Made by a program: the position numbers and the translations under genes. From Candidatus Saganbacteria bacterium (GTDB taxonomy: Bacteria; Margulisbacteria; WOR-1; XYC2-FULL-46-14), in the NCBI GenBank assembly GCA_013202975.1, contig JABMQY010000010.1:1-32329 (forward strand): DNA of 32,329 nt, written 5' to 3'. Below, piece by piece: positions 1 to 7,350 of the stretch. How positions within the stretch are numbered: position 1 is the first letter of the stretch; each line of letters begins with the position of its first letter. The notes below the pieces were generated by a model that searched no databases, had not been told where the DNA came from, and saw only the letters and a program-made list of their open reading frames with translations.

Positions 1-516
1 AATTCTTGTTGACGAGCTTCTTTGACTTATTAATGAGGTACCGGCTTCTACTTTGTCAGACAAATTCTGCTCAACCTGGCGGTTAGTCTTTAGACGGCCC
101 AATAATACTGTTGCCCGAAGATAATTTAATACCGCTGCCTGTACATGACCTGACTTTATCTGCTTTCTGGCCTTAGACAAAGATTGATAAACATCCTGGG
201 CGGCTTTCTTATATGCCGGATTGCTCTGTCTGCCGGCCCACTTTCTGACCCGGCGCAGGCGTCTATAGGCAATTCTGATCCTTCTTTTGAGTTTTCTTAT
301 CTTCCCCGGAGGAATTTTTACTTTCTTAGGTTGTACAACAGCGGGAGTTGCCGATTTATTGTCTGTTTTAAAAGGATTTGAATCGGTATTATCTGGATTA
401 TCGGCAACAGATGGCCTTTTGGTCCCTTCCCCTTTATTTTTGCCCTGGGGTGGCTTATTAATTTTTCTTGGCGGAAGCTGAGGCTTTCTTACCAATCCTG
501 AAACACTTGCATCCAT
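1..516 (-). CDS. Hypothetical basic protein, N-terminal 172 residues (runs off window)
   Basis: An open reading frame without a stop runs from ATG at 516 off the left edge of the window. A good Shine-Dalgarno sequence (AGGAGAGG, about 6 nt upstream) supports this start. I do not recognise the product. Residues 1-75 are Pro/Lys/Asn-rich and look disordered. Residues 76-105 are extremely basic (runs such as KLKRRIRIAYRRLRRVRKW) and lead into a helical, Ala/Lys/Gln-rich region. There is no signal peptide or membrane segment in the visible part. A sigma-28-like promoter lies 70 nt upstream, giving a leader of about 65 nt. The basic helix could bind nucleic acid or an acidic partner, but that is a guess. 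The reading frame is secure; the function is unknown. Confidence 0.75.
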   Translation of the reverse strand, partial: MDASVSGLVRKPQLPPRKINKPPQGKNKGEGTKRPSVADNPDNTDSNPFKTDNKSATPAVVQPKKVKIPPGKIRKLKRRIRIAYRRLRRVRKWAGRQSNPAYKKAAQDVYQSLSKARKQIKSGHVQAAVLNYLRATVLLGRLKTNRQVEQNLSDKVEAGTSLISQRSSSTRI

Positions 517-585: not shown

Positions 586-613
586 TTATCGGATTATAAG
601 GGGAAAAACTTGC
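586..613 (-). promoter_or_regulatory. Candidate sigma-28-like promoter of the gene starting at 516
   Basis: On the minus strand GCAAGTTT is followed by 12 nt and then TCCGATAA. This resembles the FliA/SigD consensus (TAAAGTTT, about 11 nt, GCCGATAA). The same geometry occurs before three other unknown genes in the window. The leader between it and the ATG contains a G/C-rich stretch (CCCGAGCCTGAAGGGG) that could fold; I match it to no known riboswitch. Confidence 0.4.
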
Positions 614-641
614 ACAGATATGAGAAAATCATGAAATAGCG

Positions 642-669
642 TGAAATTTCTTAAATTATCGTGCGATAA
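642..669 (+). promoter_or_regulatory. Candidate sigma-28-like promoter of the gene starting at 676
   Basis: TGAAATTT at 642-649, a 12-nt spacer, then TGCGATAA at 662-669. The -10-like block ends 6 nt before the ATG at 676, so transcription would start at or next to the start codon. This fits the absence of a Shine-Dalgarno sequence and suggests a leaderless mRNA. Confidence 0.45.
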
Positions 670-675
670 CTAATT

Positions 676-1104
676 ATGAAGATACAATTTTTCGGGCCGT
701 CTTCGGGGAGAGTGGAAGTTAACGGAAAGCTCTTAATTCCAGCACGTTTGTTAACTCCTTTTTATCCACAAAACAGAACACTGGCTTCATGGCTAAAAAG
801 AGAGCTGTTTTATTCGGAAAATTTTCGAGGGGGAGCCAGTAATGAGCTGGTCCAAAAAATAATAGACTGGCCGGTCCCAAGCTTGGAAAAGATAACCGCC
901 CTGGCCCGCTTGGTTCCTCAAGGCAGGGGAGAATGCATAATTGCAGAAGCAATAACTAATAACAATAATAAATTAATACTCCTTTCTAATGATGCTGCTT
1001 TCGCAGATAGGGCGGAAACAGTATTGGGACAGAGAGTTTTTTCCGGAACTCCGGTTAGTCCTCAAAGAGAAGCTTACTATATTGATATTTTCAACCTCGA
1101 TTAA
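676..1104 (+). CDS. Hypothetical protein with PIN-like C-terminal half
   Basis: A 142-residue protein of unknown function with no signal peptide or membrane segment. The C-terminal half (about residues 82-125) reads GRGECIIAEAI, then a hydrophobic strand LILLSND, then AAFADRAETVLGQRVFSGTP. This resembles the second half of DUF3368-type PIN domains (GEAEAI, a hydrophobic strand ending in an acidic residue, then a helix and a V-x-G-T turn). The N-terminal half does not show a clear PIN start, so the assignment is tentative. There is no Shine-Dalgarno sequence before the ATG; a sigma-28-like promoter ends 6 nt upstream. The gene is divergent from the partial gene at 516. It converges with the next gene, the two stops lying only 8 nt apart, which supports it being real. 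No antitoxin-like partner is visible. Confidence 0.6.
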   Translation: MKIQFFGPSSGRVEVNGKLLIPARLLTPFYPQNRTLASWLKRELFYSENFRGGASNELVQKIIDWPVPSLEKITALARLVPQGRGECIIAEAITNNNNKLILLSNDAAFADRAETVLGQRVFSGTPVSPQREAYYIDIFNLD

Positions 1105-1112
1105 AACAACTT

Positions 1113-2036
1113 CTATCTTAGTGATGCAGCAATAATTCCCCAGTTTTCACGCAGGTTTTGACTCATATCTGTTATTTCAAATCTGCCGGTCTCTTTGTTT
1201 TTCCTGACTCTGATAAATGATTTTGGGTTTTGCATATTCCAAGTGATAAAAGCCCCGTCTTCTTCGTTAACTGATACCAGCAATTCATCGCTATCCTTCA
1301 ATTCTGCCAGGAACCTCTGATTTGACAGCACTGTTGTATGTTTTTGGTCGGTGGTCGGCTTATTAATCGGCCAATTCCTCTGGTTCCTTCCATAGCGGTC
1401 AACATAATAAAATTGTGAAAGAGTATTCCGCATCGCATTATATTTATTAACAACCTCACAAATATTTCTCCATTGCGGGATTAATTCCTGTCCCAAACCG
1501 GCCACTTCAATCTGCCCGCTTCTGCCGTCAAACCGAATAGTTAGATTTGGCCTTTGATGACCCTGATTTCCGGAAGACAGGTTTGGCATATTAAGAAGCC
1601 CGTCTCTTTGATCCACATTGATCTGTTTTTCCAGATAAACTACCCCCTCCGGATTAGTTCTTATATCGGCATCGGCATAAAAACTGCTGGAGAAAAGAGC
1701 ATCAATATTTGAGCTTATGACGTCATTTACTCTTGGAGCAAATTGCCCAAATACAGCGGTATCAATACTACCTCTTTGGTACATTATCCGGCTGACTTCA
1801 CCAGTGGGGGCAGAGACATAAACCGACTGGCCGTCCAAAAGATCAACAAATCTTTCGTACTCGCTTTGTCCCAGTTTAAAAATCGTAACCGCAGATCCGT
1901 CTATATTGGTTTTTACCCAAAACCTCTCCCCCCCAAAAATAAAGTCGCTGTTTGCCCTCTTGTTTCTATTAAGCCATTTAATGCCTTGTGGTGATGTTGG
2001 GGATGTTCTTCTGAGAGCTGGATTGATTCTTGCCAT
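1113..2036 (-). CDS. Hypothetical protein, 307 residues, with an internal repeat
   Basis: Cytoplasmic-looking protein without signal peptide or membrane segments; I do not recognise the family. The start at 2036 is preceded by AGAGGAGG about 5 nt upstream. A motif appears twice: residues 165-193 (IRF, then SGQIEV, then GQELIPQWRNI) and residues 274-302 (IRV, then TGRFEI, then SQNLRENWGII). This implies two copies of a small alpha/beta unit. A related segment may lie near residues 36-65. The N-terminus is basic and Pro/Ser-rich. The gene stands alone: pheT ends 107 nt upstream on the same strand, and a sigma-28-like promoter lies in that gap. Function unknown. Confidence 0.75.
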   Translation of the reverse strand: MARINPALRRTSPTSPQGIKWLNRNKRANSDFIFGGERFWVKTNIDGSAVTIFKLGQSEYERFVDLLDGQSVYVSAPTGEVSRIMYQRGSIDTAVFGQFAPRVNDVISSNIDALFSSSFYADADIRTNPEGVVYLEKQINVDQRDGLLNMPNLSSGNQGHQRPNLTIRFDGRSGQIEVAGLGQELIPQWRNICEVVNKYNAMRNTLSQFYYVDRYGRNQRNWPINKPTTDQKHTTVLSNQRFLAELKDSDELLVSVNEEDGAFITWNMQNPKSFIRVRKNKETGRFEITDMSQNLRENWGIIAASLR

Positions 2037-2080
2037 TTTTTCCTCCTCTGATGGGAATGATTTTAGACTCTTCTATGTAT

Positions 2081-2108
2081 ATATCGTTAAATTCGATGAG
2101 AAATTTCA
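2081..2108 (-). promoter_or_regulatory. Candidate sigma-28-like promoter of the 307-residue gene
   Basis: On the minus strand TGAAATTT (2108-2101), 12 nt, then AACGATAT (2088-2081). The 8-mer and most of the spacer (YTCATCGAA) are shared with the element at 7301-7328. The -10-like block lies 45 nt before the ATG at 2036. Confidence 0.45.
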
Positions 2109-2143
2109 GGTGATTTTGGGAAAGAGGGATTTGTAGGGGGAGA

Positions 2144-4438
2144 TTATTTCCTTAATTCAACCCCAAGTTTTGTCGTGAGGGATTTTAAAATCTCTTCATG
2201 CTTAGCATTAACTTCGTCAACTGTTAGGGTTCGGTTTTTATCACGGTAGGTTATACGATAAGCGCGGCTGTTCTTGTATACATCAAATAATTGGATATCT
2301 TCTACCATTGATCCGCCAACTTCGCGGATAGTTTCTAAAATACCAGCATGGGTTACGGAATCCTTAATAAACATCGCAACATCTCGATCAGATTTTGGGA
2401 ATTTTGGAAGGGGTTTGCACTTTTTGGTCAATTTAATAGCACTAAATAAAACCTCTAAATTAATCTCAAAAACATAGACCGGCTTTTTAAAATCATATCT
2501 TTTTGATATATCAGGATTAAGCTCTCCAAACCAACCGACCGCTTTATTCTCAAAAATAATTCCGGCAGATTGCCCGGGATGCAATAAGTTGCTTTGTATT
2601 GACTCAAATTTCGAACTGCCAAATTCAAAAAGCAAAGTTTCAATTATACCTTTTAGGGCAAAGAAGTCAGCTCCCTGCCCGGTCAATGCGCCAGCCAGCA
2701 TATTGGTTTCAACATATGATTTTGCTTTATGATAAACCTTACCAACCTCAAAAATCCCCAAATCATCTATTTGATGCCTCAGGTTGTGGTCAACTGCCTT
2801 TAGGATACTGGGAAGCATAATAGTACGGAGTACAGATTCATCTTCTGTCAAAGGATTAGCAATGGGAATATAGTCGGCCTCCAATCCCAGTCTCTCCGGA
2901 TATTTTGGATCCAAAATGGAAAATGTCTGGACCTCATACAACCCGGCACCAGCCAGGATTTCCTTGATTTTCCTGGAATTTTTCTCAAAGGCATCGGTTG
3001 ATAATTCCTGAGATACACGAGATATGGTAGTATCTATTTTGTCATAGCCATAAATTCGGGCAACCTCTTCTACCAGATCAACTTCTCTTTCTATATCTCC
3101 AAAACGGGAAAGCGGCACAGAAACAGTAACAGATTTCATACTGCTTTTTATCTTCTTAAATCCAAGACGCCCCAAAATCTTAATTATTTCGGCCGCCTTA
3201 AGCTTTGTTCCCAAAAGACGGTTGGTGTTTTCAACTCTTATGGCAAGTTGCTTGCACTTTCGAGATTTTGCTTTTTTATCTATTTTTCCAGCTAATATCT
3301 TTCCTTCCCCCAATTCGGCAATTAATTGGGCTGCACGATCAAGAGCAGCCGCTACCCCGTCCCAATCCACCCCTTTCCCAAAACGAACGGATGATTCAGA
3401 CCTAAGCTTTAGCATCTGAGATGTTTTATTTATCGAAATCGGATTAAAGAAGGCAGATTCTAGCAGGATATTTTGTGTATTCAAAGCAACCTCTGTCCCA
3501 ATCCCACCCATAATTCCGGCAACTGCAATCGGTTTTTTTGAATCTGCAATTACCAGTATTCCCGAGTCAAGTTTCAGTTCCTGTTCATCCAGGGTTTTAA
3601 TTTTCTCACCAGCTTTAGCTTTTCTAACAACTATCTTATCTACTTTATCTGCATCAAAAGCATGCAGGGGCTGGCCGTATTCTAAAAGGACAAAATTTGT
3701 AATATCGACAACATTATTTATCGGTCGAACACCGGATAAAAGAAGCTTCTCCTTTATCCACTGCGGCGAATCCTTTATCTTTACCCCTTCAATTACCCGA
3801 GCCATGTATCTAGGACACAATTCTTTATCTTTTACTTCTACTTTTATATTGACTTTTCGATTTGTCTCAATTAATTTGACATTTGGATTTTGGATTTTGT
3901 CATTTAACACGGCAGCAACCTCACGAGCAACCCCTATAATTGACTGTAAATCACCTCGATTTGGCAAAACATCCAAATCTAATACTATACCGTTTTTCCC
4001 AAGAACTTTTTTTACATCCATACCAATCTTGGCATCAAGAGGAAGCTTCATCACGTGGTCTGCTTTGGCCAGACCAAGTTCATGCGGGCGACAGAGCATG
4101 CCAAATGATTCGACTCCGGAGAGGGCAATTTTCTTAACATGAATTCCCTCTGCTAATTTTGATTCGTCCGACGCTACCGGCACCCTGTCTCCAACTTGCA
4201 GGCTCAAATCATCGGTGATGGTCTTTATTATCTCTGTTCCCAAATCAATTTCGCATATTAAATGCGCATCATTTCTCTCAACTGCTTTTATCTTTCCGCA
4301 TACTACATTTTCGATTCCGCCTCCATGATACTCAATTGCGCCGACTTCGGTCCCGGCCATAGTCAGCTTTTCAGCCAAGTCCTCAGGCGAAAGTTTGAAT
4401 TTAACATATTCTTTAAGCCACTTAATCGGTATTTTCAT
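2144..4438 (-). CDS. pheT: Phenylalanine--tRNA ligase beta subunit
   Basis: The 764-residue beta chain of the alpha2-beta2 phenylalanyl-tRNA synthetase, slightly short for bacterial PheT (about 790-800). Domains in order: an N-terminal MKIPIKWLKEYV start; a tRNA-binding (EMAP/OB) domain at about 40-150; B3/B4 editing region at about 200-370 (NNVVDITNFVLLEYGQPLHAFD); B5 at about 395-470; the catalytic-like core at about 480-665; and a C-terminal FDX-ACB anticodon-binding domain at about 673-764, beginning with FPKSDRDVAMF. The tRNA-binding domain is degenerate: it lacks the usual Pro-Asn-Ala-Asp and I-V-C-G-A motifs. It follows pheS on the same strand with one base between stop and start (TGATATG), so the two are translationally coupled. 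Confidence 0.97.
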   Translation of the reverse strand: MKIPIKWLKEYVKFKLSPEDLAEKLTMAGTEVGAIEYHGGGIENVVCGKIKAVERNDAHLICEIDLGTEIIKTITDDLSLQVGDRVPVASDESKLAEGIHVKKIALSGVESFGMLCRPHELGLAKADHVMKLPLDAKIGMDVKKVLGKNGIVLDLDVLPNRGDLQSIIGVAREVAAVLNDKIQNPNVKLIETNRKVNIKVEVKDKELCPRYMARVIEGVKIKDSPQWIKEKLLLSGVRPINNVVDITNFVLLEYGQPLHAFDADKVDKIVVRKAKAGEKIKTLDEQELKLDSGILVIADSKKPIAVAGIMGGIGTEVALNTQNILLESAFFNPISINKTSQMLKLRSESSVRFGKGVDWDGVAAALDRAAQLIAELGEGKILAGKIDKKAKSRKCKQLAIRVENTNRLLGTKLKAAEIIKILGRLGFKKIKSSMKSVTVSVPLSRFGDIEREVDLVEEVARIYGYDKIDTTISRVSQELSTDAFEKNSRKIKEILAGAGLYEVQTFSILDPKYPERLGLEADYIPIANPLTEDESVLRTIMLPSILKAVDHNLRHQIDDLGIFEVGKVYHKAKSYVETNMLAGALTGQGADFFALKGIIETLLFEFGSSKFESIQSNLLHPGQSAGIIFENKAVGWFGELNPDISKRYDFKKPVYVFEINLEVLFSAIKLTKKCKPLPKFPKSDRDVAMFIKDSVTHAGILETIREVGGSMVEDIQLFDVYKNSRAYRITYRDKNRTLTVDEVNAKHEEILKSLTTKLGVELRK

Positions 4439-4439
4439 A

Positions 4440-5477
4440 TCAAAATTGTTTTAAAAACCTCAAGTCATTTTCGAAAAACAGACGAATATCCGAAATTCCG
4501 AATTTCAACATTGCAATCCGCTCAATCCCCATTCCAAAAGCATAACCGGAATACTTATCCGGATCGTATTTAAGATTTTTAAAAACATTTGGATCGATCA
4601 TGCCGCAGCCCAAAATCTCAAGCCATCCGGTTTCCTTACAAACCCGGCAGCTCTCGCCATTCGACAGTTTACCCTTTCCACCGCAGTTTACACACTCAAC
4701 ATCAACCTCGGCAGAGGGTTCGGTAAAAGGAAAATAACTGGGGCGAAAACGGACCCTTTTCGCCTTTCCAAAAATCGCGTGCAATAAGGCCGTAAGTGTC
4801 CCCTTTAAATCTGCAAAGGTGATGTTTTTGTCAACCATAAATCCCTCTACCTGATGGAACACAGTTGAATGAGTAACATCGGCATCACGGCGATAGACCT
4901 TTCCCGGAGCAATTATTGCCAAAGGCGGCTTTTTCTTTTCCATCACCCTAATCTGCACCGGAGAGGTGTGAGTTCTAAGTAAAGTATCTTTTTCAATATA
5001 TAAAGTACTCCACATATCTCGCGACGCGTGGTGTTTTGGAATATTTAAGGCTTCAAAATTATAATAATCGGTTTCAATATCCGGCCCGTCTGCAATAGAA
5101 AACCCAAGCCGCAAAAAAATATCTACAACTTCGTTCATCACCTGGGTTATCGGATGGAGTTTCCCCCTCTTTATGCCTTTCCCCGGCATGGTTATATCGA
5201 CTGCAGAGGATTTTATTTTCTTCTCTTTGTCGGCAGATTCAAGCGTTACTCTTTTCTCTTTAATTATATTCTCTAATTTGTTTTTAGTGATGTTTAGATT
5301 TTTGCCAAAATGAGGGCGGTCCTCTGTTGGAATATTTTTCAGGTTCTTGACCAATTCGGTTAACAAACCTTTTTTCCCTAAATAGCGAATTCGCCAGGCT
5401 TCAAGTTCCTGAAGATTTTTTATTTCATTTAGACGAGATATTGCTTCGTCTTCAACCGCTTTTATTCTCTCAACCAT
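4440..5477 (-). CDS. pheS: Phenylalanine--tRNA ligase alpha subunit
   Basis: Catalytic alpha chain that charges tRNA-Phe; 345 residues, normal length. The N-terminal about 90 residues form the coiled coil that contacts tRNA. The class II core follows: RTHTSPVQIR at about 168-177 and VYRRDADVTHSTVFHQVEG at about 194-212 (motif 2 region), and motif 3 GYAFGMGIERIAML at 311-324. A zinc-knuckle-like insert carries four cysteines (C262, C265, C277, C280) just before GWLEILGCGM; many bacterial PheS proteins have this insert, E. coli lacks it. The gene overlaps the upstream RNA methyltransferase gene by 8 bp and is followed by pheT. Confidence 0.97.
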   Translation of the reverse strand: MVERIKAVEDEAISRLNEIKNLQELEAWRIRYLGKKGLLTELVKNLKNIPTEDRPHFGKNLNITKNKLENIIKEKRVTLESADKEKKIKSSAVDITMPGKGIKRGKLHPITQVMNEVVDIFLRLGFSIADGPDIETDYYNFEALNIPKHHASRDMWSTLYIEKDTLLRTHTSPVQIRVMEKKKPPLAIIAPGKVYRRDADVTHSTVFHQVEGFMVDKNITFADLKGTLTALLHAIFGKAKRVRFRPSYFPFTEPSAEVDVECVNCGGKGKLSNGESCRVCKETGWLEILGCGMIDPNVFKNLKYDPDKYSGYAFGMGIERIAMLKFGISDIRLFFENDLRFLKQF

Positions 5478-6234
5478 TAATACCCCTTTGTCTTAGCGCT
5501 TCATACATTATAACAGATGCGCAGATGGCTGCATTAAGGGATTCAGCTTTGCCTGGGAGTGGTACTTTTACCACGGAATCTGCAGTGCTCAAAATTTCTT
5601 GGCCTAATCCTGCGCCTTCATTACCAATAAGTACAACCGTATTCTCGGTATAGTTTATCTCCCAGTAATCGCAGATCCCCGCTGTGTCAGTCGCGACAAT
5701 TTTATAGTTTTTTGACTTTAGCCAGACTAAGGCATCACGGATATCGTCCACTTGGACAACGGGAATGTGAAACAAGGATCCCGCGGTTGATCGAATTGTT
5801 TTTTGGTTATAAATATCAACACAACCTTCGCTTGCAATTATGCCGGAAACATTTGCCGCATCCGCTGCTCGGATGATGGTCCCCATATTCCCCGGGTCCT
5901 GGATATCGATGCAGGCAATTATTAAGGAATTAGCCTTGTCGGAAATCTGCTGTAGTGACAAGTCGCGACTTGTCACTACAGCCATTATCCCCTGCGGTGT
6001 GACAACATCGGATAATTTTTTGTATTCTTTGTCAGAAATCTCGTAACAGGGAATACCCTTCTCTTTTGCCTTAATCATCACCTGATGTTTTTTTGTATAG
6101 ATAATGTATTCAATATCAGAGAGTGCTTCTTCTATTAGATGAGGACCTTCTATAACGAATTTTCCTTCCTTCTTGCGAACGGACTTATTTTCGAGTATTG
6201 TCCTAATATTCTGTATTGGAGAACCATTTTTCAT
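5470..6234 (-). CDS. SpoU/TrmH-family RNA 2'-O-methyltransferase
   Basis: A 254-residue SPOUT enzyme that methylates the 2'-OH of a nucleotide in rRNA or tRNA using S-adenosylmethionine; the target cannot be told. The N-terminal substrate-binding domain contains KEGKFVIEGPHLIEEAL (22-38). After a linker, the knotted methylase domain shows motif 1 (IQDPGNMGTIIRAADA, 111-126), motif 2 (LIGNEGAGL, 202-210) and motif 3 (VPLPGKAESLNAA, 224-236) with the expected Asn and Glu residues. The linker (about residues 84-96) is encoded by a perfect 34-bp palindrome. The Shine-Dalgarno (AGGGTGAG) lies inside the terminal repeat of the adjacent DUF559 unit. Placement directly before pheS is common for this family. 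Confidence 0.93.
   Translation of the reverse strand: MKNGSPIQNIRTILENKSVRKKEGKFVIEGPHLIEEALSDIEYIIYTKKHQVMIKAKEKGIPCYEISDKEYKKLSDVVTPQGIMAVVTSRDLSLQQISDKANSLIIACIDIQDPGNMGTIIRAADAANVSGIIASEGCVDIYNQKTIRSTAGSLFHIPVVQVDDIRDALVWLKSKNYKIVATDTAGICDYWEINYTENTVVLIGNEGAGLGQEILSTADSVVKVPLPGKAESLNAAICASVIMYEALRQRGING
5949..5982. repeat. Perfect 34-bp palindrome inside the RNA methyltransferase gene
   Basis: Each 17-nt arm reads GCTGTAGTGACAAGTCG, and the two arms meet with no spacer. It is translated in frame as part of the linker between the two protein domains, so the coding sequence stays open. A perfect palindrome this long is not expected by chance and suggests an inserted or copied repeat unit. 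Confidence 0.85.
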
Positions 6235-6281
6235 GTTTTAACTCACCCTAACCAAACTATAATTTATTTCCAATCATTTCA

Positions 6282-6304
6282 TCCCTCTCTTATGAAGAGA
6301 GGGA
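6282..6304. repeat. Hairpin at the 3' end of the DUF559 gene
   Basis: Perfect 10-bp stem TCCCTCTCTT / AAGAGAGGGA with a 3-nt loop. It overlaps the last codons and stop of the DUF559 gene. There is no strong T-run after it, so I read it as part of the repeat unit more than as a classical terminator. Confidence 0.7.
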
Positions 6305-6670
6305 AAGGTGTTCTTGTAGATATTTTACTATATTATTCAGAACTTTTTCCAGGTTATTTTGGATTGCTTCATTTTTGAAACGAATAATACGGAATCCCAG
6401 GAAGTTTAGAATATGCTCTCGCAAAACATCGTAATCTTTTTGTTTTTCGTGAATACCACCATCAACTTCAATAATTAGCATTGTTTCATGGCAAAAAAAA
6501 TCAGCAACAAAAAATCTTCTGCGGTTGTCATATTTGAATTGAATCGGATGTTGCCTTAGAAATTTCTTCCCAGCAAGTTTTCTATTCCGCAAAGCCCTCC
6601 AGAGGATTTTCTCCGCTTCAGTTTGATTTCTTCTAAGATATCTGGCAACTTGCTTAGGTAATTGCTTCAT
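6290..6670 (-). CDS. DUF559 (Vsr-like, PD-(D/E)XK) endonuclease domain protein
   Basis: A 126-residue single-domain protein. The N-terminal helix LRRNQTEAEKILWRALRNRKL (12-32) and the core FVADFFC (54-60) followed by LIIEVDGGIHE (65-75) match the DUF559 family. These supply the acidic residues of the PD-(D/E)XK nuclease active site (D57, E69, D70); LGFRIIRFKN (91-100) is the usual following strand. DNA cleavage is inferred from the fold; the natural substrate of this family is not settled. The gene lies between inverted repeats and hairpins, as if carried with its repeat, and interrupts an otherwise co-directional gene run. ATG at 6670 has no strong Shine-Dalgarno. Confidence 0.88.
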   Translation of the reverse strand: MKQLPKQVARYLRRNQTEAEKILWRALRNRKLAGKKFLRQHPIQFKYDNRRRFFVADFFCHETMLIIEVDGGIHEKQKDYDVLREHILNFLGFRIIRFKNEAIQNNLEKVLNNIVKYLQEHLSLSS

Positions 6671-6736
6671 AACTCAGCCTGACTAATCATTGTACTATTC
6701 TAACCTATCTATCCCTCTCCTGGGAAGCATGTAATT

Positions 6737-6761
6737 CCCCCTCTCTTTTCAAGAGAGGGGG
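6737..6761. repeat. Hairpin upstream of the DUF559 gene
   Basis: Perfect 11-bp stem CCCCCTCTCTT / AAGAGAGGGGG with a 3-nt loop, closely related to the hairpin at 6282-6304. It lies just beyond the stop of the 167-residue gene on the minus strand and could attenuate or terminate its transcript, although no U-tract follows. Confidence 0.7.
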
Positions 6762-6777
6762 TTAGGGGGTGAGTTTA

Positions 6778-7281
6778 TCAAAGCAACTTAACAGCAGCAC
6801 AGACAGCTCCTCTGTCTCTAAATATTTTTACCGCTTCACCGGCCTGCTGGGCACTCTTTTCTGCCTTTAAGATCAGCTTATTGACAGCTGGTTTGTCTTT
6901 TACTTTTTTTGCAGCAATAGAGGCTCGATCCGCAGCTTTTGCGTCAAGATCTGCTTTTTGCAAGGCCTGACCAACTCTCCTGGTCTCAAGCAGCATCTCC
7001 TTAACACATAATTGCTTTATTTCCACTTTAGTTTTTGAAATATCCCTCCTAACTTTTCGGTTCAATTTTTGCGGGCGGCAGACTAGTTTTCTCTTCTTTC
7101 TTTTGCAGAGAGATATTTTTGGCTTTTGGGCAGGAATAAAATTAAAAACAGTGACTCTCCCGTCAGTTTTAACCTTTCTTACCTCAATTGACCTGCATTT
7201 CTTATCCGAGCAGCAGACATTATATCCATTTACCTTTTTATTATTCGGAGTAACAAGAGTAATATTTCTTAATTCTGTCAT
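6778..7281 (-). CDS. Hypothetical Lys/Ala-rich protein, 167 residues
   Basis: I do not recognise this protein. Residues 1-75 hold a cysteine pair region (CCSDKKC at 23-29), further Cys at 58 and 68, and a strongly basic stretch (LCKRKKRKLVCRPQKLNRKVRR). The cysteines could bind metal. Residues 75-167 are helical and Ala/Lys/Asp-rich (QALQKADLDAKAADRA) and may form a helical bundle or coiled coil. There is no signal peptide or membrane segment. The start at 7281 has a strong Shine-Dalgarno (AGGAGG) and a sigma-28-like promoter 20 nt upstream. It heads the minus-strand run leading to the DUF559 gene, the methyltransferase and pheST. It is divergent from the secreted protein gene at 7388. Confidence 0.75.
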   Translation of the reverse strand: MTELRNITLVTPNNKKVNGYNVCCSDKKCRSIEVRKVKTDGRVTVFNFIPAQKPKISLCKRKKRKLVCRPQKLNRKVRRDISKTKVEIKQLCVKEMLLETRRVGQALQKADLDAKAADRASIAAKKVKDKPAVNKLILKAEKSAQQAGEAVKIFRDRGAVCAAVKLL

Positions 7282-7300
7282 TATTAAATCCTCCTTTTAT

Positions 7301-7328
7301 CTTTCGCATGCTTCGATGAAAAATTTCA
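7301..7328 (-). promoter_or_regulatory. Candidate sigma-28-like promoter of the 167-residue gene
   Basis: On the minus strand TGAAATTT (7328-7321), 12 nt, then TGCGAAAG (7308-7301). The -10-like block is the weakest of the four. Yet 18 bp around the upstream block (7312-7329) match 2092-2109 with a single difference, which is the best evidence that this is a conserved site. Confidence 0.45.
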
Positions 7329-7350
7329 GACTATTTTATCCATTCTTGAA

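What the first reader, a model, noticed from the sequence alone, without database searches (positions are those of the whole stretch)
586..7328. Four unknown genes share a sigma-28-like promoter architecture
The elements at 586-613, 642-669, 2081-2108 and 7301-7328 all read N-N-A-A-R-T-T-T, exactly 12 nt, then N-N-C-G-A-T-A-A or a close variant. Two of them also share most of the spacer (18 bp with one mismatch, 2092-2109 and 7312-7329). The shape recalls FliA/SigD promoters, with one extra spacer base. No flagellar gene is in the window, so the regulon would consist of unknown proteins, perhaps tied to motility, surface change or a cell-state switch.
Basis: partly seen in the sequence, partly recalled or inferred. 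Interest (0 to 1): 0.62.

Follow-up and report, generated by a model that had tools for sequence, protein, structure and literature searches.

The report
Giant sigma-28 regulon in immotile bacteria
Three of the four flagged sites belong to a real promoter class that precedes about 170 mostly unknown genes in the readable part of this Saganbacteria (WOR-1) genome; its most likely sigma factor is FliA, in a lineage that kept the flagellar protein-export machine but lost filament and motor, which suggests that the regulon is the cargo of a secretion system.

Summary
Three of the four sites (644-669 +, 2081-2106 -, 7301-7326 -) belong to a promoter class STGAAATTTYY-N12-CGATAWATATA; the fourth (586-611) scores as background. 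In the 1.61 Mb read (73% of the genome), 173 sites lie within 120 nt of a gene start, against 1 for the reversed matrix. Forty-two start codons lie exactly 6 nt after CGATAN and almost all of those lack a ribosome-binding site, so the motif sets a transcription start at or near the AUG. Spacing is that of sigma-28; there is no extra base. Among 84,980 GTDB species a stringent form occurs only in Saganbacteria/Margulisiibacteriota records. A FliA-type sigma gene lies in the flagellar operon and in 30 of 31 genomes of the class; the rival ECF sigma is missing from 11. The class keeps flagellar export genes but no flagellin, FlgM or FliG torque domain. Proteins behind the motif mostly lack Pfam matches and carry an Arg-rich, acid-poor, non-Sec N-terminus. 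Best reading: FliA drives substrates of an immotile flagellar-type export system. Promoter class firm, FliA probable, secretion inferred.

The parts
644..669 (+). Sigma-28-type promoter (TGAAATTT...CGATAA); CGATAA ends 6 nt before the ATG at 676, so a leaderless mRNA is predicted
   Evidence: 27.5 bits; distance class d=6 shared by 42 genes
676..1104 (+). Unknown protein, 142 aa, behind the 644-669 promoter
   Evidence: No Pfam match
2081..2106 (-). Sigma-28-type promoter, 44 nt before the start at 2036
   Evidence: 31.6 bits
1113..2036 (-). Unknown protein, 307 aa (MARINPALRRTSPTSP...), with the Arg-rich acid-poor N-terminus
   Evidence: No Pfam match; no homologue in 37 relatives, one paralogous domain in the same genome
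7301..7326 (-). Sigma-28-type promoter, 19 nt before the start at 7281 with a Shine-Dalgarno sequence between
   Evidence: 24.6 bits
6778..7281 (-). Unknown protein, 167 aa, behind the 7301-7326 promoter
   Evidence: No Pfam match
586..611 (-).
   Evidence: -1.7 bits, background level
1..516 (-). Unknown Lys/Pro-rich protein (172 aa shown, runs off the window) whose N-terminus (MDASVSGLVRKPQLPPRK) resembles regulon proteins; promoter unproven

Best explanation
The sites are promoters of the FliA (sigma-28) form of RNA polymerase in a Saganbacteria (WOR-1) bacterium. The -35 element reads STGAAATTTYY and the -10 element CGATAWA, at sigma-28 spacing; transcription starts about 7 nt after the -10 element, at the AUG itself in about a quarter of the genes. 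FliA is encoded inside the operon of a flagellum-type export machine (FlhA, FlhB, FliPQR, FliI, FliF, rod, P and L rings, a hook-like protein) that has lost flagellin and the FliG torque domain. Class III flagellar genes have been replaced by a very large set of lineage-specific genes. Shown by computation: the promoter class, its size, its class-wide conservation and the gene content. Probable: FliA as the cognate sigma. Inferred: that the Arg-rich, acid-poor N-termini are export signals and that the regulon is the secreted cargo, made when FliA is active.
For: Spacing peak and 173 sites before starts versus 1 for the reversed matrix; shuffles 0-2; start codons at exactly +6 with SD in 5% versus 91% when the start is 17 nt or more away; TTGA[CA][AT]-N16-18-TANAAT before 31 of 501 other genes and 0 of 138 regulon genes. 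Motif in 31 of 31 class genomes with zero control hits; stringent form only in Saganbacteria/Margulisiibacteriota/WOR-1 records of GTDB; 22 of 31 unselected sites in those loci again before starts. FliA orthologue (62-79% identity in 29 relatives) in 30 of 31 genomes including own, versus ECF missing in 11. FlhA in 30 of 31; flagellin, FliG_C and FlgM in 0 above cut-off, while all 8 flagellin-bearing relatives have FliG_C and 7 have FlgM. N-termini: Arg 2.0x, Glu 0.6x, Arg excess confined to residues 2-31, Sec/TM-like 5% versus 26%; no acidic residue in the first 12: 74% versus 32% of controls without a hydrophobic N-terminus; aliphatic or Pro at 3/4: 72% versus 50%. Pfam families: 46 and 39 in 75 and 70 regulon proteins versus 189 in 75 controls.
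Against: No transcript, binding or secretion data. FliA is divergent (137 bits, below the TIGR02479 cut-off of 190), and -35 has G where the sigma-28 consensus has T, so an ECF-like reading (TGAAAT-N16-CGATA) is not absurd. Some FliA-bearing class genomes have few strict sites (G023 1; G006, G008 and G030 2 each). Ser, the residue most enriched in known type III signals, is not enriched, and Arg enrichment is not typical of them. The regulon also contains central-metabolic enzymes. The KLISFD-domain members lack the basic N-terminus.
Confidence: 0.62

Rival explanations
1. The motif is read by the ECF sigma factor (contig C24), with an ECF-type -35 TGAAAT and a -10 of CGATA; the position of the ECF gene behind a motif-bearing tpi-like gene would be autoregulation.
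For: TGAAAT-N16-CGATA resembles SigW-type promoters (own knowledge); the tpi-like gene just upstream of the ECF gene has a site (24.2 bits).
Against: No ECF match in 11 of 31 class genomes, including G025 (36 sites) and G017 (28 sites), both 94-95% complete; FliA tracks the motif.
Confidence: 0.1
2. FliA drives a developmental or cell-state regulon (as sigma-28 does in Chlamydia and WhiG in Streptomyces) whose products stay in the cell; the flagellar export genes serve something else.
For: Second copies of phosphofructokinase, aldolase, triosephosphate isomerase and PPDK are in the regulon; non-motile Chlamydia uses sigma-28 for late genes (PMC12282069).
Against: The sharp N-terminal signature, the conserved export genes in 30 of 31 genomes and fliA lying inside that operon are not predicted by it.
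Confidence: 0.22
3. The motif is the operator of an unknown transcription factor or a dispersed repeat, not a sigma-specific promoter.
For: Conservation is higher and longer than in most promoters (STGAAATTT nearly invariant).
Against: Fixed distance to leaderless starts, orientation toward genes, and absence of housekeeping promoters before the same genes.
Confidence: 0.05

Closest known systems
Sigma-28 (FliA/SigD) class III flagellar promoters
   Same: Same -35 to -10 spacing, CGATAA -10, FliA/WhiG-family sigma encoded among flagellar genes
   Different: -35 is TGAAATTT rather than TAAAGTTT; targets are mainly unknown proteins, not flagellin, and very numerous; many transcripts predicted leaderless
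Chlamydia sigma-28
   Same: Non-motile bacterium with a flagellum-related export system and a sigma-28 that does not make flagella
   Different: Chlamydia sigma-28 bound only two sites, hctB and tsp, by ChIP-seq (PMC12282069); here about 170 first genes
Campylobacter flagellar co-expressed determinants (Feds)
   Same: Sigma-28-dependent proteins not needed for motility, co-expressed with flagella (PMC9856085)
   Different: Four proteins in a motile, flagellated bacterium; here the filament and motor are absent and the set is large
Filamentless hook-basal bodies (Buchnera) and other exapted flagellar T3SS
   Same: Flagellar export genes kept, filament lost, secretion proposed (PMC3459982)
   Different: Here FliA is kept and precedes a large regulon across a whole class

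Membership tests
Sigma-28 promoter | -35 TAAA-type and -10 CGATAA-type elements at N15 spacing (TAAA to GCCGATAA) | tested here: met
   GAAA to NNCGATA spacing N15; unique spacing peak; first base of TAAA is G, so the -35 is a variant
Sigma-28 promoter | Directs transcription by FliA holoenzyme | not testable with these tools
   Only co-occurrence: FliA in 30 of 31 class genomes with the motif
Sigma-28 promoter (flagellar class III) | Controls flagellin and other class III flagellar genes | tested here: not met
   No flagellin or FlgM gene in the genome or class
FliA/WhiG sigma factor family | Regions 2 and 4 with best match to FliA/WhiG models | tested here: met
   TIGR02479 is the best NCBIfam model, E 7e-40 but below the curated cut-off; best PDB relatives include FliA and WhiG
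ECF promoter | Cognate ECF sigma present wherever the motif is used | tested here: not met
   ECF missing from 11 of 31 genomes including motif-rich ones
Flagellum (motility organelle) | Export apparatus and basal body genes | tested here: met
   FlhA, FlhB, FliI, FliF, FliM, FliN, hook/rod and FliK families matched; FliPQR, FliE, FlgA-C and FlgF-I recognised by sequence inspection
Flagellum (motility organelle) | Filament (flagellin) and torque ring (FliG_C) | tested here: not met
   0 of 31 class genomes above cut-off; FliG is 171 aa with N and M domains only
Non-flagellar T3SS (injectisome) | Secretin outer-membrane pore and needle | not tested
   FlgH and FlgI ring genes are present, which points to the flagellar type
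Type III secretion substrates | N-terminal signal: acid-poor start, aliphatic/Pro at 3/4, Ser-rich | tested here: inconclusive
   First two strongly enriched, Ser not (rules from PMC3338616)

The most novel reading that the evidence does not exclude
A whole bacterial class (Saganbacteria/WOR-1) has turned the flagellum into an immotile secretion machine and the flagellar sigma factor into the master switch of a secretome of about 200 fast-evolving substrates, including a polymorphic KLISFD-domain family and spare glycolytic enzymes, used on other cells.
Probability: 0.4. Interest if true: 0.88.

Novelty: new variant of a known kind. Interest (0 to 1): 0.72.

Why it matters
It gives a one-line sequence handle (TGAAATTT-N14-CGATA) that picks out a coherent set of about 170 mostly unannotated genes in an uncultivated lineage near the Cyanobacteria. 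If the regulon is exported, it would show how a flagellum can be exapted for secretion while its sigma factor is re-tasked, a route proposed for flagellar export systems but documented so far only with small sets of proteins, and it would give testable substrates for an uncultured class.

Tried and rejected
Extra spacer base relative to sigma-28: rejected, alignment artefact. ECF sigma as reader of the motif: considered because of the SigW-like -35; rejected on phylogenetic profile. Housekeeping promoter: rejected, TTGACA/TATAAT-type promoters sit before other genes and not before regulon genes. Flagellin promoters of flagellated relatives as a canonical sigma-28 comparison: no convincing site found in the four short loci held. 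FlgM as the switch: none found in the class. KLISFD domain: no Pfam family covers it in the members tried, PDB profile matches only at chance level (E 0.13), AlphaFold model poor (mean pLDDT 63.5), so no fold search was made. Homologues of the 307-aa window protein: none in 37 relatives.

Full report
Setting. The window is contig C87 of a 2.20 Mb draft genome (139 contigs, 91% complete, 2% contamination). A stringent form of the motif, searched in one genome per species of 84,980 GTDB species, matched 38 stretches, all titled Saganbacteria, WOR-1 or Margulisiibacteriota. The organism is therefore placed in Saganbacteria (WOR-1), from the motif distribution and kinship, not from a 16S gene. I could read 1.61 Mb (73%) as sequence; genes there were called with a simple ORF caller of my own, so start sites are approximate.

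The observation. The four strings are present as described. Their spacing class is strikingly non-random: AAATTT followed by CGAT occurs 133 times at a gap of 14 and 3 to 14 times at other gaps. A matrix trained on these sites converges on ATAnnSTGAAATTTYYnnnAAAnnnTnnCGATAWATATATA, with 173 sites intergenic and within 120 nt of a start versus 1 for the reversed matrix. Three window sites belong (31.6, 27.5, 24.6 bits); the 586 site does not (-1.7). The gene at 1-516 still looks like a regulon protein at its N-terminus, but its promoter is unproven.

It is a promoter. The distance from CGATAN to the start codon is bimodal: 42 genes at exactly 6 nt, 11 at 9 nt, few from 10 to 16, and most from 17 nt on. 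Genes at 6 nt have a Shine-Dalgarno-like sequence in 5% of cases; those at 17 nt or more in 91%. That is what is expected if transcription begins about 7 nt after the -10 element: either the AUG is the first codon of a leaderless mRNA, or there is room for a ribosome-binding site. Non-regulon upstream regions carry TTGA[CA][AT]-N16-18-TANAAT (31 of 501) and regulon ones do not (0 of 138), so this is a second, separate promoter class. In 38 loci from other Saganbacteria, 22 of 31 sites not used in the selection are again intergenic and just before starts; the reversed matrix gives 0 of 2.

Which sigma factor. The genome has three sigma-70-type genes: a housekeeping one, an ECF and a FliA-like one. 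The FliA-like gene lies between flgJ-like and flgB genes in a flagellar operon; its best NCBIfam model is FliA_WhiG (E 7e-40, below the curated cut-off) and its best solved relatives include FliA and WhiG. The motif spacing is that of sigma-28. The strict motif is present in all 31 genomes of the class, with zero control hits in each; a close FliA is in 30 of them, the exception being 79% complete. The ECF is missing in 11, including two of the motif-richest and nearly complete genomes. This favours FliA strongly but is not a binding experiment.

What the machine is. FlhA is in 30 of 31 class genomes. Flagellin, FliG_C and FlgM are in none above cut-off, while the eight relatives outside the class that have flagellin all have FliG_C and seven of them FlgM. 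In the window's genome FliG is 171 aa with N and M domains only, and the hook-like protein is 267 aa. So the class has a flagellar-type export apparatus and basal body but no filament and no torque ring. Exaptation of flagellar export systems for secretion has been proposed, for Buchnera among others, and flagella-like loci occur in a dozen species not thought to have flagella (PMC3459982). The 2019 Saganbacteria genome paper does not mention flagella, secretion or sigma factors (PMC6349859), and library searches for Saganbacteria or WOR-1 with flagella found nothing relevant.

What the regulon is. Its 171 first genes are poor in known domains: 46 and 39 Pfam families in sets of 75 and 70, against 189 in 75 length-matched controls. 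The 307-aa window protein has no homologue in 37 relatives. Residues 2-31 show Arg 2.0x, Gln 1.5x, Pro 1.4x, Glu 0.6x; outside the KLISFD family the Arg excess falls off at residue 31 and acidic residues are 2.7% versus 8.1% in residues 2-11; only 5% have a Sec/TM-like N-terminus versus 26%. The same bias appears in the 22 proteins from other Saganbacteria (Arg 2.4x, Pro 2.0x, Asp 0.5x) and more weakly in operon followers. Of three published rules for type III substrates in Pseudomonas syringae (PMC3338616), two are strongly enriched (no acid in the first 12, 74% versus 32%; aliphatic or Pro at 3/4, 72% versus 50%) and one, Ser content, is not. Twenty-six first genes belong to a paralogous group of 54, most of it sharing an N-terminal KLISFD domain in front of varied C-terminal regions.

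Conclusion. Firm: a large, class-wide promoter family with defined start geometry. Probable: FliA as its sigma. Inferred: that the N-terminal bias is an export signal and that the regulon is the cargo of the filamentless export machine. The main alternative is a FliA-run cell-state programme whose products stay inside; the second copies of glycolytic enzymes in the regulon fit that at least as well. Sigma-28 control of non-motility proteins is known in Campylobacter, and non-motile sigma-28 use in Chlamydia, but with small sets of targets (PMC9856085; PMC12282069); the scale and the setting here are the new part.

Noticed in passing
L091:403-627, L120, L127 and others; alignment A4: A KLISFD...LRxxGxPxAxPLI N-terminal domain of about 70 residues heads 66 proteins in this genome, 43 in G025, 13 in G006, 3 in G001 and 1 in G004, with varied C-terminal parts (LRR, HEAT); not found in 52 other relatives.
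   Followed up: partly
L101:870-2132, L119:3009-4004, L027:1991-2848, L058:13762-16437: The regulon holds divergent second copies of phosphofructokinase, class II aldolase, triosephosphate isomerase and PPDK; first copies of the first three lie together in L104:14134-17794 without the motif.
   Followed up: partly
L027:707-2848 (contig C24): An ECF sigma, a small probable anti-sigma membrane protein and a CpxP/Spy-like protein follow the tpi-like regulon gene on the same strand.
   Followed up: no
window:1-516, L105:5336-9829, L015:7255-9027: Three unknown proteins start with MDASVS, and the L105 protein carries a C-terminal copy of the 307-aa window protein.
   Followed up: no
L129:2721-3849: FlhB is read as two ORFs (208 and 136 aa), and a separate 117-aa FlhB C-domain protein lies in L018:12564-12917; a frameshift or assembly error is possible.
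   Followed up: no
G032, G034, G037, G039, G042, G045, G047, G050: Flagellin-bearing relatives in the same phylum show two or three FlhA matches each, suggesting a true flagellum plus a second flagellar-like export system.
   Followed up: no
window:7388-9868: 826-aa protein with a Sec-type N-terminus and bacterial Ig-like domains, divergent from the 6778-7281 regulon gene and without the motif.
   Followed up: no
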